Assembly: GCA_036703985.1 (NCBI GenBank)
Contig: DATNQN010000108.1
Span: forward strand, 62,001-126,000
DNA: 64,000 nt
Reading direction: 5' to 3'
From: Leptolyngbyaceae cyanobacterium
GTDB taxonomy: Bacteria > Cyanobacteriota > Cyanobacteriia > Cyanobacteriales > Aerosakkonemataceae
The notes under the pieces were generated by a model. The model searched no databases. It had not been told where the DNA came from and saw nothing but the letters and a program-made list of their open reading frames with translations. Below are positions 17,482-59,571 of this stretch, piece after piece; position 1 is the first letter of the stretch, and each line of letters begins with the position of its first letter. A program made the position numbers and the translations under genes.

Positions 17482-18247
17482 TGGTGAGATGCGATCGCGA
17501 TCGTGCCTTAACTGCTAGTTTACCGATTTGACGGGTGAAAGTAGAAATTGAACCGTAATCAGAACCCGATAAATTTACTTAAGTGCGATCGCTTAATTTC
17601 GAGAACAATAGTTTCTTGCAATTATCTAGGTGAAATTAAGTAAAATTAGAAAAGCTATATTAATTATTACTTACGTAACAGGAATTTGTCAAGAAATGTT
17701 GTGGTGATTTTCACTGAAAATTCATTCAGTCTTAGCTTAATTTTTAAGTATTTTTGGGATTAAAAGCGTTGATTACCAGCAATTTGGCTGATTTTTTTTC
17801 GTATATTGGCAGTATTTTTCTGTATCTTTAGATGTAAATTTTTGATGAAGACTTACTCAAATTGTTGACCTGACCAATCTGGATATGCCAATTTGTTTTT
17901 AGTAATGAAATTGAGATGAGCGGTAAACTACTGCAATAGCTAAATTTTAAAGATATTGATTTGGTAGTTTTTACTAGTTTTAAAATCATTGCCTATCGAA
18001 TTTTAAGTAGATCGAAAAGTTTTTCAAAAGCCTTTGGTATGAGCAATTTCTTATCCTAGCTCTACTTAACGAACTTCTGACAGAACGAGTATTTCAGACT
18101 AGCTCAAAAGAACTTACCATTTAGGGATCTTCACCTTCTAGCTTAGAGAAATCTGATAAAGTACCCGTTTTATCGTAAGTTTTCGGTGTACTGACTTTTA
18201 GAGGTTCGGTACTTTCAACCTTATAATTACTTGGAGAAATAGAAATT
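17482..18247 (+). other. Long upstream region of the first PEP-CTERM gene
   Basis: There is no credible gene in these 766 bases. The left part has HIP1-like GCGATCGC runs. From 17839 onward it aligns with the region upstream of the second PEP-CTERM gene (19970 onward). Near 18233-18236 GGAG precedes the ATG at 18248 by 11 bases, the same arrangement as in the second gene. The untranslated leader may be several hundred bases long. Confidence 0.6.
17839..17935 (+). promoter_or_regulatory. Shared PEP-CTERM upstream element, copy 1
   Basis: TTTTTGATGAAG (17839-17850), 12 bases, then TGTTGAC (17863-17869); 54 bases after the start of that box comes TGAGCGGTAAAC (17917). The same boxes with identical 12- and 54-base spacing occur upstream of the second PEP-CTERM gene, and the first two boxes with the same 12-base spacing upstream of the third. 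TTGAC inside the second box could be a -35 element. Confidence 0.65.
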
Positions 18248-19258
18248 ATGGCTTCTTTAACTACCCTACAAAAGTTATCGATCGTAACAGCGAGTGCAAT
18301 GTTTGTTGCGATGGGAGCAGTTAGTTCGGCACAAGCTTTCACTCTGAGTAATGGACCAGGAGACGGAACCCTAACCATAGGTGTAGATGGATATGGTTCT
18401 TTTGGCTCGGCTGTAGGATCGACTACTAGCAATGCTTATTACGATCCGATCGGTTCTGGAACTGGTGCTGGAACTTCCTTTGAGTCCGGTGTCGCTATTA
18501 GATTTGGTAATAGTGGACAAAGGAAATTCTTAACTAGTGGTTCAATAGGCGGCTCGGGGTATCTAGGAAATCCAACGGTCACGGGAACCAACACTTCAGC
18601 AAATAGTAGTTTCAATTATGGTGGTCTGCTGTTTAACTTAAATCAAATTCTCACACCAACTTATACAAATGGAGTACAAACTGGCTCGACATTAACCCAA
18701 ACTTACAATATTACTAATACCGCCAATACTAGCCTCAGCTTCGAGTTATTACGTTACCTAGATGGTGACTTGTACTTTGATGGTTCGTTAATTGACGGTG
18801 GTGGTAGGCTGGTAGCAAATGGAAGGGAAATTTTATTTGAAACCGATAGTGCTACTGGCTCCAATACTTCTACAACATTTGTTGGTATCTCAGCTGATGG
18901 AGGTACAATACCAGTTGTCAGCCGCTACGAAATAGATTCTTTTTCTGGTTTGCGTAGCAGGATTATCGCGGGCACGGCTTTAGATAGTACGATCCGAGGT
19001 GATGGATTAGATGCTGACGAATTTATTGATGCTGGTAACGGGTATGATGTGACTCTAGCTTTGAACAATCTATTTTCTTTGAGTGCAGGCGGAAGTACAA
19101 CTTATACCACCCGTACCTACTTTGGCGCAGGTACCCCTCAAAGTGTCGCCGATGTTCCCGAACCCGCTTCCACCTTGGGTCTGCTCGCTCTAGGCACAAT
19201 AGGTGCAGGTTCGATGCTGAAGCGCAAACAGCAAAAGAAAGCAACCCTCAAAGCATAA
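18248..19258 (+). CDS. PEP-CTERM sorting domain protein
   Basis: A 336-aa exported protein: signal peptide (about 1-30, ending SSAQA), a Gly/Ser/Thr-rich strand-forming body without recognisable enzyme motifs, and a C-terminal sorting signal beginning VPEP at residue 303, followed by a hydrophobic helix and a basic tail (KRKQQKK). PEP-CTERM proteins are processed by an exosortase and commonly accompany exopolysaccharide production; no exosortase gene is in the window. The signal peptide and tail are closely related to those of the gene at 20193, so the two are paralogues or share modules. The ribosome-binding site TTGGAG lies 11 bases before the ATG. Confidence 0.9.
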   Translation: MASLTTLQKLSIVTASAMFVAMGAVSSAQAFTLSNGPGDGTLTIGVDGYGSFGSAVGSTTSNAYYDPIGSGTGAGTSFESGVAIRFGNSGQRKFLTSGSIGGSGYLGNPTVTGTNTSANSSFNYGGLLFNLNQILTPTYTNGVQTGSTLTQTYNITNTANTSLSFELLRYLDGDLYFDGSLIDGGGRLVANGREILFETDSATGSNTSTTFVGISADGGTIPVVSRYEIDSFSGLRSRIIAGTALDSTIRGDGLDADEFIDAGNGYDVTLALNNLFSLSAGGSTTYTTRTYFGAGTPQSVADVPEPASTLGLLALGTIGAGSMLKRKQQKKATLKA

Positions 19259-19391
19259 CCTAGTTACCTGAACTGATTCAATTACAGAAGATCGGACTAA
19301 ATTTGCCATAAATCTGTCCGAGCAATCCAAGAAAACTCCGTGTTTTCCCAGTGGAAAGCGCGGCTATTTTTTTTGATGAAGCAGTAGTGCT

Positions 19392-19969: not shown

Positions 19970-20066
19970 TTTTTGATGAAGTTGAATTCATACTGTTGAC
20001 TCTACTGATGTGCGTATGACAATCTGTTGTTAGTGATGAGATTCAAATGAGCGCCAAATTACCGAC
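19970..20066 (+). promoter_or_regulatory. Shared PEP-CTERM upstream element, copy 2
   Basis: TTTTTGATGAAG (19970-19981), 12 bases, TGTTGAC (19994-20000), then TGAGCGCCAAAT at 20048, exactly 54 bases after the start of the second box as in copy 1. Between the boxes and beyond them many further positions agree with copy 1 (for example CAATCTG against CAATTTG, and TTAGTGATGA against TTAGTAATGA). Confidence 0.65.
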
Positions 20067-20192: not shown

Positions 20193-20768
20193 ATGGCTAT
20201 TTTAACTGTGATGAAAAAGTTGTCCGCTACTGCGGGAGCAGCATTGATTGCTGTGGGAATGGCAGGAGCAGCACGAGCCGCTAGCTTTAACTTTTCTTAT
20301 ACCCTTGATAATGGAAGCATCCTCAAAGGCATCTTGGAAGGCGATGTTCAAGCAGACGGCGATCGAGTTTTCGTTTCATCTGTGACGAATACTAGCTTTA
20401 AAGGTATAGTTAGCCCCGATTTACCCTTCGTTCAGTCTATAGTTCGTTTCCTGGGCGGATCTTCTGAAACTATAACAGTTAGCTTCAGCGGCCAGCACAT
20501 GGATATCATGGCTTCTACCCAATTGGATGGCGGAGATGGCTTTCTGTTTGAGAGTGTAGGAAAGGTATATGGTATCCCTGTCTATGTTAGTGGCAATTCT
20601 TTTGGCGGTAAAATTGAAGCGTACAAACCCGATCGATGGCAGCTTACATCATCTGCTTCCAACTCCGCTTCTGTTAACGAACCTGGCTCTACATTAGGTT
20701 TATTAGTATTTGGTGCAATAGGTACGGGTTTGATGCTCCAGCGCAAACAGCAAAAGAAACGAGGCTAA
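20193..20768 (+). CDS. PEP-CTERM sorting domain protein, smaller paralogue
   Basis: A 191-aa exported protein with a signal peptide (about 1-27, ending ARA), a short strand-rich body and a C-terminal sorting signal with VNEPGSTLG in place of VPEP at about residue 161, a hydrophobic helix and a basic KQQKK tail. I chose the ATG at 20193 although the frame is open from TTG 20175: MAILT aligns with MASLT of the gene at 18248, and TTGGAG then lies 12 bases upstream, the same arrangement as there. The Pro-to-Asn change in the sorting motif is worth noting, because it may weaken exosortase recognition. Function unknown; probably surface or matrix associated. Confidence 0.85.
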   Translation: MAILTVMKKLSATAGAALIAVGMAGAARAASFNFSYTLDNGSILKGILEGDVQADGDRVFVSSVTNTSFKGIVSPDLPFVQSIVRFLGGSSETITVSFSGQHMDIMASTQLDGGDGFLFESVGKVYGIPVYVSGNSFGGKIEAYKPDRWQLTSSASNSASVNEPGSTLGLLVFGAIGTGLMLQRKQQKKRG

Positions 20769-20952: not shown

Positions 20953-22425
<1,473 letters not shown>

Positions 22426-38203: not shown

Positions 38204-38717
38204 TTGGCAATATCATGTTCGGTTGATTAGTTTTGATTACCGCATCTCTAGCAAAAACCTGAAAACCCCTTCTCTGTCTACCTCCTGTCCTCAGCAGGAT
38301 GGTAAATTTCTGCTCGGAATGCGCTAACTACCGGAAGCGATCGCAGCAAGCAGCCACTAAGTCCAGTTTATCAGCTAGAGCCACAATCAGTCAGGGTTTA
38401 TGCTTACTAGTGTTTATCAAAGATAATACGGTCAGTCATACCTAACTTTACATCATCTTCATATAGTTCGCTTGTCCTTGAAACTGCTCAAAGCCAGATG
38501 GATTAAGCAATGCAAGCAAAAATATCCCCTGCATAACAACAATCCAAAATATAATTTTTTGATAAAGTAACGCAAAAATTGTAGACACTTTCTCAGTTTA
38601 TTTTCTTAAATAAACTACTAATTTGCAGTTTGCACATTGAAAAAGACAAAAAATAACCGTAATTTCTCTGAATACCGCTGAGCGGTTAACGCAAGACAAT
38701 CAGCATTTACCAAACCA
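38204..38717. other. Upstream region of the third PEP-CTERM gene
   Basis: No credible gene in these 514 bases. The right end carries the PEP-CTERM upstream boxes (38556-38586) and a TGAGCGGTTAAC box at 38679. The left part has no recognisable structure. Confidence 0.5.
38556..38586 (+). promoter_or_regulatory. Shared PEP-CTERM upstream element, copy 3
   Basis: TTTTTGATAAAG (38556-38567), 12 bases, TGTAGAC (38580-38586), 132 bases before the ATG at 38718. The 12-base spacing is identical to copies 1 and 2, while the rest of the region is not alignable except a TGAGCGGTTAAC box at 38679. Confidence 0.6.
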
Positions 38718-39476
38718 ATGAAAAACATATTTACTAAAATTGCCACCGGTGCAGTTACAAGTACTGCTCTTTCTGTTGCGATCGCAGTTGATGTTCCGAC
38801 AGCAAGCGCAGCCAGCCTTTTTATTGCCAATCACGGGTTTGAAGAAACAATCCTGGAAGAAGGCGGATATACTTACAGAGAACCAATTCCAGGTTGGCAA
38901 ATCTACGACCCCAACAACCTTTTCGCCAACGGAAATTCCAATTATTCCGTATTTAATGCTGTCGAAGCTTCTTATCCTGGCGGTATAGTTGCAGAAGGCA
39001 ATAATGTGGGCGCTATTTTTCTGGCAAACGAAGTAGGAAGCGGTGTCGCAGGGTTTTCCCAAATCCTCGGTGATGTCCTGACTGCTGGTAAAGCCTATAC
39101 TTTGAAAGTGAATATAGGCGATCCCTTCCCCGACGAATATACTGGCGAGGGTTTCCCCGGCTACGCCGTACAATTGCTAGCAGGCGGTCAGGTGATTGCC
39201 GAAGACTTTAACACCCAAAGTTTCAATCCGGGCACTTTTATCACTTCCACCGTATCCTATACAGCTAGCGCTAATGACAACTACTTAGGTCAAGCACTGG
39301 AAATCCGATTGCTCAACGTCCTAACAGGTACGGGTAAAGAAGTTAATTTCGATAACGTTCGCTTAGACGCAACTTCAGTTCCCGAACCTACATCAATTTT
39401 TGGCTTATTGGGATTAGGTGCTTTCGGTGCGGTTTCAGCTTTTAAGAAAAAGCGCACGTCCTCCCAACGGGGATAG
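38718..39476 (+). CDS. PEP-CTERM sorting domain protein
   Basis: A 252-aa exported protein: signal peptide (about 1-33, ending ASAAS), a body with NHGFEE at the start, an IPGWQIYDPN motif and INIGD-like strands typical of carbohydrate-binding-like jelly rolls in PEP-CTERM proteins, and a C-terminal VPEPTSIFGLLGLG helix (from residue 221) with a KKKR tail. Likely an extracellular or cell-surface protein processed by an exosortase encoded elsewhere. Its body is unrelated to the two at 18248 and 20193, although it shares their upstream motif. Confidence 0.88.
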   Translation: MKNIFTKIATGAVTSTALSVAIAVDVPTASAASLFIANHGFEETILEEGGYTYREPIPGWQIYDPNNLFANGNSNYSVFNAVEASYPGGIVAEGNNVGAIFLANEVGSGVAGFSQILGDVLTAGKAYTLKVNIGDPFPDEYTGEGFPGYAVQLLAGGQVIAEDFNTQSFNPGTFITSTVSYTASANDNYLGQALEIRLLNVLTGTGKEVNFDNVRLDATSVPEPTSIFGLLGLGAFGAVSAFKKKRTSSQRG

Positions 39477-59497: not shown

Positions 59498-59571
59498 CGG
59501 GGCGTAGCGCAGCTTGGTAGCGCACTACTTTGGGGTAGTAGGGGTCGTGGGTTCGAATCCCGCCGCTCCGA
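59498..59571 (+). tRNA. tRNA-Pro (anticodon GGG)
   Basis: A complete 74-base cloverleaf: acceptor stem CGGGGCG / CGCTCCG, D arm GCGC-AGCTTGGTA-GCGC, anticodon stem CTACT / AGTAG around loop TTGGGGT (anticodon GGG), and T arm with GTTCGAATC. Discriminator A at 59571; CCA is not encoded. It reads CCC and CCU codons. Confidence 0.95.

What the first reader, a model, noticed from the sequence alone, without database searches (positions are those of the whole stretch)
38556..38690. Third copy of the PEP-CTERM motif 18 kb away from the pair
The first two PEP-CTERM genes could share upstream DNA simply by tandem duplication. The third, at 38718, has an unrelated body and unalignable flanks, yet keeps both boxes at the same 12-base spacing. 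That makes functional constraint more likely than common descent of the region.
Basis: seen in the sequence. Interest (0 to 1): 0.6.

Follow-up and report, generated by a model that had tools for sequence, protein, structure and literature searches.

The report
Shared promoter element of surface-protein genes
Three genes for exported surface proteins carry the same control-like DNA sequence in front of them, and related genomes carry it in front of many genes of the same export system and of the sugar coat, which points to a shared control system that I did not find described.

Summary
TTTTTGATRAAG-N12-TGTWGAC has three exact matches in the 7.68-Mb genome, all in the window and each before a PEP-CTERM-type gene. 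The pair share 138 bp upstream at 72%; the third copy shares little beyond the boxes. Yet it scores 31.0 bits on a matrix trained without it, against 21.1 at most in two 4-Mb nulls.

Other genomes show a longer element: AT block, TTTTTTGATRAAGATTnnnTnAAAnTACTGAC, then often an extended -10 19-20 nt on. I read it as a sigma70-type promoter (box 2 = -35) with an imperfect inverted repeat (box 1 plus 'spacer') as regulator site. In 388 genomes of the order, 63 fetched hits outside the training set precede PEP-CTERM-like genes (31), polysaccharide genes (6), cyanoexosortase A (1), fatty-acyl-AMP ligases (7), other genes (11) or no gene (7). This suggests a PEP-CTERM/exopolysaccharide regulon. Its regulator is unknown.

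Constraint is supported for the element as a class, not for this gene's ancestry.

The parts
38549..38555 (+). AT-rich block before box 1 of the third copy (ATATAAT)
   Evidence: aligned by model R3 at 38549-38597
38556..38567 (+). box 1 of the third copy, TTTTTGATAAAG; read as the left half of the regulator site
38568..38579 (+). 12-nt spacer of the third copy, TAACGCAAAAAT; keeps the A-tract, not the right half-site TTCA (4 of 11 complementary pairs)
38580..38586 (+). box 2 of the third copy, TGTAGAC; read as -35
38606..38611 (+). TTAAAT, the hexamer 19 nt after box 2; does not fit TGn-nAnnnT, so no clear -10 in the third copy
38718..39476 (+). PEP-CTERM gene with HpiC1-like body
17839..17869 (+). 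first copy: box 1 17839-17850, spacer, box 2 17863-17869
17884..17894 (+). extended -10 candidate TATGCCAATTT of the first copy
18248..19258 (+). PEP-CTERM gene of the first copy
19970..20000 (+). second copy: box 1 19970-19981, spacer, box 2 19994-20000
20015..20025 (+). extended -10 candidate TATGACAATCT of the second copy
20193..20768 (+). gene of the second copy, weak PEP-CTERM-like tail; start at ATG 20193 chosen by eye, the listed frame opens at TTG 20175

Best explanation
The motif is part of a cyanobacterial promoter/operator element that co-regulates PEP-CTERM surface-protein genes with exopolysaccharide genes and, in one genome seen, the cyanoexosortase. Box 2 (YTGAC) is the -35 hexamer; in most copies of related genomes an extended -10 (TGn-nAnnnT) follows 19-20 nt later. 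Box 1 plus the 'spacer' (about TTTTGATGAAGATTCAGTAAAA, imperfect inverted repeat TTTTnnTGAAnnTTCAnnAAAA) is the site of an unidentified dimeric regulator, probably an activator, centred near -50. The third copy at 38556 is a diverged member: it keeps the AT block, left half-site, A-tract and -35-like box, but not the right half-site or the extended -10. Shown: sequence conservation, spacing, and position before these gene classes. Inferred: transcription start, binding protein, activation, co-regulation, and that the third copy works.
For: Third copy above both nulls with a matrix trained without it. Model R1 from seven elements, run on 40 related genomes: of 11 hits at E<1e-4 outside its training set and the own genome, 10 precede PEP-CTERM genes or a fragment of one (two of the 10 before the same gene). 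Model R2, trained on PEP-CTERM elements only, on 388 genomes of the class: of the 7 best hits outside the own genome, 6 precede PEP-CTERM (2), sugar-nucleotide transferase (2, several hundred nt downstream; one by likeness only), Wzz and PGA_cap genes. Model R3 on 388 genomes of the order: of 63 fetched hits, 31 PEP-CTERM-like, 6 polysaccharide, 1 cyanoexosortase A (TIGR03763, 297.6 bits, cut-off 150). Orientation: at 16 loci with equal flanks a PEP-CTERM-like gene lies downstream on the same strand in 11 and on the other side in 1; at 20 near-miss control places 1 and 0. Extended -10 TGn-nAnnnT at 19 nt in 13 of 25 copies and at 20 nt in 5 more, chance about 0.5% per position. Near-invariant columns include the G of box 2 and the A and T of the -10. 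Inverted symmetry centred at the end of box 1: P 0.012 by column permutation.
Against: No transcription start and no binding protein is known. In the own genome 4 of 6 copies, the third among them, lack the extended -10. Relatives of the third gene lack the element. Only 6 of 31 PEP-CTERM matches of the own genome carry it. Of the 32 R2 class hits that I looked at, 20 precede neither class, or no gene, or lie in frames. R3 hits are not independent: 11 of the 31 are one orthologous gene of the kind of training element L271, others are relatives of L191, L223, L245/L247 or the WecG elements. Seven precede fatty-acyl-AMP ligases, which I did not expect. The symmetry is moderate (P 0.039 in the PEP-CTERM rows alone).
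Confidence: 0.58

Rival explanations
1. Descent only: the element travels with duplicated 5' modules (upstream DNA plus signal peptide) and its similarity reflects shared ancestry without a binding function.
For: The pair share 138 bp upstream at 72%. Many carriers share a signal peptide of the type MATSTLMKKLS and similar tails. The Nostoc-like hits are one orthologous gene.
Against: The third copy shares the boxes without the flanks. Carriers include genes without that signal peptide and of other function: WecG, Wzz, PGA_cap, cyanoexosortase A.
Confidence: 0.17
2. Alternative-sigma promoter: box 1 is the -35 and box 2 the -10 of a specialised sigma factor, and the conserved block downstream lies in the transcript.
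For: Fixed 12-nt distance and strong conservation of box 1. The third copy and three other copies of the own genome keep box 1 without the downstream extended -10. Tandem box 1/box 2 units before one gene in G006.
Against: The second letter of box 2 varies (TGT, TAC, CAC), whereas a second block with near-invariant A and T stands 19-20 nt on. The J-Box of SigJ is absent: 0 of 39.
Confidence: 0.18
3. The third copy alone is a chance or decayed likeness, though the element is real elsewhere.
For: It lacks the right half-site and the extended -10. R2 gives it only 15.0 bits with the next window hit at 11.7. R2 did not list it in the own genome at E 0.2, where only 150 of 5798 candidates were scored. 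Relatives have no element.
Against: 31.0 bits against a null maximum of 21.1, about 4e-4 expected per genome before asking that it lie before a PEP-CTERM gene on the right strand.
Confidence: 0.15

Closest known systems
PrsK/PrsR sigma-54 site before proteobacterial PEP-CTERM genes (Haft 2006, PMC1569441; passages and section 7 read)
   Same: A shared promoter-region motif before many PEP-CTERM genes, with polysaccharide and exosortase genes in the picture.
   Different: There a 17-nt motif 1 and a sigma-54 motif about 63 nt apart, reported for Proteobacteria only. Here no -24/-12 site fits and the units are 12 nt apart.
SigJ J-Box promoters of Nostoc hormogonia (PMC6495340, passages and section 8; PMC12188702, passages and section 19)
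   Same: Cyanobacterial promoters tied to motility, polysaccharide and crtB; five Nostoc PEP-CTERM genes depend on SigJ.
   Different: J-Box GGGaAtacT is absent here (0 of 39), and those five genes are said to lack it too. A 'second motif' of that study has its sequence in a supplement that I could not open.
XssQ sites of the synechan genes (PMC8205485, passages)
   Same: Activator sites near the start of cyanobacterial polysaccharide genes.
   Different: Consensus AAGTTnnAC: 0 of 39 perfect, no better than shuffles.
Zur boxes, e.g. before the PEP-CTERM gene zepA of Anabaena (PMC10957091, passages)
   Same: A palindromic site at the promoter of a PEP-CTERM gene; TGATRAA resembles one arm.
   Different: Second arm absent; mean 5.31 mismatches against 5.53 in shuffles (the consensus used is recalled).

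Membership tests
PrsR/sigma-54 PEP-CTERM regulatory site | sigma-54 motif, TGGCAC-N5-TTGCW like (letters recalled) | tested here: not met
   mean 4.13 mismatches against 4.23 in shuffles, 0 of 39 perfect
PrsR/sigma-54 PEP-CTERM regulatory site | PrsR, PrsK and PrsT genes in the genome | not tested
   no search made
SigJ J-Box promoter | GGGaAtacT at -10 | tested here: not met
   0 of 39 perfect, mean 3.21 mismatches against 3.02 in shuffles
XssQ site | AAGTTnnAC, single or tandem | tested here: not met
   0 of 39 perfect
Zur, Fur, NtcA and HLR1 (RpaB) boxes | their consensus sites (recalled) | tested here: not met
   0 of 39 perfect for each; mismatches near the shuffled mean, NtcA 1.85 against 1.66
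sigma70-type promoter | TTGAC-like -35 and extended -10 at a fixed distance | tested here: inconclusive
   TGn-nAnnnT at 19 nt in 13 and at 20 nt in 5 of 25 copies; absent in 7, the third copy among them; no start mapped
dimeric regulator operator | inverted repeat | tested here: inconclusive
   best of the centres tested, P 0.012 by permutation; the third copy has 4 of 11 pairs
known structured RNA | match to an Rfam family | tested here: not met
   only a tRNA at 59498-59571 in the window at gathering threshold
PEP-CTERM protein (third gene) | C-terminal PEP-CTERM domain | tested here: met
   PF07589 23.9 bits, cut-off 20.7; TIGR02595 22.8 bits, cut-off 16

The most novel reading that the evidence does not exclude
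One undescribed regulator governs a cyanobacterial cell-surface regulon (PEP-CTERM substrates, their cyanoexosortase, and polysaccharide genes such as WecG, Wzz, cytidylyltransferase and glycosyltransferases) through one promoter-proximal operator that single genes gain and lose.
Probability: 0.42. Interest if true: 0.72.

Novelty: new variant of a known kind. Interest (0 to 1): 0.6.

Why it matters
PEP-CTERM genes are numerous in cyanobacteria and their control is open: the 2006 study reported its shared upstream motif for Proteobacteria only, and a 2025 study describes SigJ-dependent Nostoc PEP-CTERM genes without a J-Box. An element with a consensus and named parts makes the regulator searchable by DNA pull-down and the regulon testable in a laboratory strain, and would tie exosortase cargo to sugar-coat synthesis at the promoter.

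Tried and rejected
Pattern search of the own genome with 3 mismatches: noise, 24 places against 19 in the control. Pattern search of 291 genomes of the order with 1 mismatch: 14 places outside the own genome against 5 in the reversed control; of 13 looked at (L087 repeats L086), 3 precede PEP-CTERM genes (L085, L090, L097), the others do not. Exact TTTTTGATRAAG-N12-TGTTGAC in the named genome collection: 12 stretches, none cyanobacterial by title, so the exact form is too strict. R1 on 388 genomes of the class at E<=0.05: of 30 weak or distant places examined (26 of them from this search, 4 or both), 3 precede PEP-CTERM genes, 7 polysaccharide-type genes and 12 lie inside long frames. R2 on 36 genomes of the order of G476: 8 places at E<=0.005, one of them (L272) overlapping the earlier L118 and no new gene class; 4 of 8 precede polysaccharide genes. 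R2 on 40 genomes of the family of G244 and on the own family; there, too, many weaker hits have no such gene. Rfam: nothing at the elements. Known sites: none fit. Multi-domain HpiC1-like relatives: the loci of L056-L084 peak at 13.8 bits, null level. Regulator: not found; I made no search for a DNA-binding protein. A response regulator behind one element (L231) shows no DNA-binding domain.

Choices that affect counts. From the broad matrix I left out L188/L207 (N runs), L174 and L186 (near-duplicates) and other weak places; L177, L184, L217, L231, L239 and L241 were kept although they do not precede a PEP-CTERM gene that I could recognise, chosen for their site. Of 34 R2 class hits outside the own genome I looked at 32 (G316 and G305 not): 5 precede PEP-CTERM and 7 polysaccharide genes, two of the 12 seen through overlapping R3 hits. 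Besides the 63 R3 hits, five places outside its training set known from earlier calls (G168, G200, G021, G632:C1257, G008:C232) show no PEP-CTERM gene behind them. Of 56 proteins behind R3 hits TIGR02595 matches 16 and PF07589 15 at E 0.05; the count of 31 rests on a tail pattern of my own, looks at the first two frames, and includes 11 Nostoc-like orthologues mostly with PES/PET tails.

Literature: nothing describing this element in eight searches. Read: PMC12188702 passages and section 19; PMC1569441 passages and section 7; PMC6495340 passages and section 8; PMC8205485 and PMC10957091 passages; all others as search listings only.

Full report
Setting. The window lies in an unnamed 7.68-Mb genome in 151 contigs. 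It carries 43 GCGATCGC palindromes where 0.63 are expected, which I recall as a cyanobacterial sign; a cyanoexosortase A gene in the same order fits.

Observation. TTTTTGATAAAG and TGTAGAC stand at 38556-38567 and 38580-38586, 12 nt apart, before the gene at 38718-39476. The pattern TTTTTGATRAAG-N12-TGTWGAC is exact at three places in the window, and those are the only exact places in the genome. The three genes encode signal-peptide-like proteins with PEP-CTERM tails; that of the second is weak. The third protein has an HpiC1-like body that the other two lack.

More than chance. The pattern had been written with the third copy in hand, so I built a matrix from 22 other elements. The third copy scores 31.0 bits; the next place in the window scores 12.8 and two 4-Mb nulls reach 20.2 and 21.1. 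Model R2 from the same 22 places it third in the window at E 0.0013, with the next place at 0.014; model R3 at 5.5e-4, next 0.0083. In the whole-genome R2 search it was not listed at E 0.2, where only 150 of 5798 candidates were scored; R1 had listed it there at E 0.026.

Descent or constraint. The pair share 138 bp upstream at 72%, so descent can explain the pair. The third copy shares the boxes and part of the spacer; the other bins are mostly at background identity. In other genomes the element recurs before genes with unrelated bodies: of 11 R1 hits at E<1e-4 outside the own genome and the training set, 10 precede PEP-CTERM genes or a fragment with such a tail, two of them before one gene; the eleventh precedes a small secreted protein. 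PEP-CTERM carriers were seen also in families f2, f5, f12, f15, f21, f29, f33, f50 and f57 of the tool's numbering.

The counter-result. Seven relatives of the third gene from five genomes have no element within 700 bp, although G008 and G004 have it before other PEP-CTERM genes. The element therefore goes with a set of genes that changes from genome to genome, not with this gene's ancestry. In the own genome 6 of 31 PEP-CTERM matches carry it.

Anatomy. Over 38 elements the consensus is nATATATTTTTTTGATGAAGATTnnnTnAAAnTACTGAC, followed after 19 nt, which end in TATGn, by CAATnT. In the PEP-CTERM set the invariant or near-invariant columns include the T-run, GAT, AAG, one A of the A-tract, the G of box 2, and the A and last T of CAnnnT. 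TGn-nAnnnT stands 19 nt after box 2 in 13 of 25 copies and 20 nt after it in 5; a given position has it by chance at about 0.5%. Seven copies lack it: L085, L185, L187 and, in the own genome, L028, L050, L141 and the third copy. The WecG elements L118 and L130 have it at 19 nt and L140 one base off. I read box 2 as -35 and the block as an extended -10. Box 1 plus spacer has inverted symmetry centred at the end of box 1, near -50 on that reading. It is the best of the centres tested, with P 0.012 by permuting columns within the arms, 0.004 in the 12 non-PEP-CTERM rows and 0.039 in the 27 PEP-CTERM rows. G006 has two units next to each other before one gene, which fits a binding site that can be repeated.

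Gene content. R2, trained on PEP-CTERM elements only, was run on 388 genomes of the class. Of its seven best hits outside the own genome six precede PEP-CTERM (2), sugar-nucleotide transferase (2), Wzz and PGA_cap genes; the two transferase genes start 578 and 713 nt on, and one was named by likeness only; the seventh precedes an SBBP-repeat protein. Over the 32 hits looked at, the figures are 5 PEP-CTERM and 7 polysaccharide. R3 on 388 genomes of the order gave hits in 59 genomes at E<=5e-4. Of 63 fetched hits outside its training set, 31 have a PEP-CTERM-like gene behind them; 6 precede cytidylyltransferase, group-1 glycosyltransferase, WecG (2), epimerase and family-2 glycosyltransferase genes; 1 precedes cyanoexosortase A; 7 precede fatty-acyl-AMP ligases; 11 precede other genes; 7 have no frame behind them. 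Many of these are relatives of training elements (11 of the 31 are one orthologous gene of the kind of L271; the WecG and cytidylyltransferase hits match training genes), so they show how far the element is kept more than how often it arose. In the orientation control, 11 of 16 loci have a PEP-CTERM-like gene downstream on the same strand and 1 on the other side; of 20 near-miss control places 1 and 0. E-values of the models are rough, and in the large searches only 11-13 candidates per genome were scored.

What it is not. J-Box, XssQ, Zur, Fur, NtcA, HLR1 and sigma-54 consensus sites do not fit (all but the J-Box and XssQ consensus are recalled). No Rfam family covers the elements in the window.

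Conclusion. The finding is real and part of something larger: a promoter element shared by PEP-CTERM and sugar-coat genes in cyanobacteria, of which eight literature searches showed no description. The third copy is a diverged member whose function is plausible but not shown. I file it as a new variant of a known kind, since a shared PEP-CTERM promoter element with another architecture is known from Proteobacteria.

Noticed in passing
window 19368-19381: A lone TTTTTTTGATGAAG (box 1 without box 2) lies between the two genes of the pair, downstream of the first.
   Followed up: no
window 38718-39476: The body of the third protein is HpiC1-like (PF22825, named after a cyclase of alkaloid synthesis), here on a PEP-CTERM surface protein; relatives in other genomes repeat the domain in frames of about 700-900 aa.
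   Followed up: partly
L300:1974-2840: A cyanoexosortase A gene (TIGR03763) about 410 nt behind an element.
   Followed up: partly
L291, L292, L293, L294, L315, L330, L338: Seven fatty-acyl-AMP ligase genes behind elements in families f12, f15 and f20; their link to the surface genes is unexplained.
   Followed up: no
L178 (G006:C280:31795-31915): Two neighbouring units of the element before one PEP-CTERM gene.
   Followed up: no
L181 (G004:C40): A well-kept element before what looks like a remnant of a PEP-CTERM gene.
   Followed up: no
L244 and L309: Related SBBP-repeat proteins behind elements in two distant families, f56 and f12.
   Followed up: no
window 20968-22425: The ATP synthase beta subunit gene (TIGR01039) follows the PEP-CTERM pair.
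   Followed up: no
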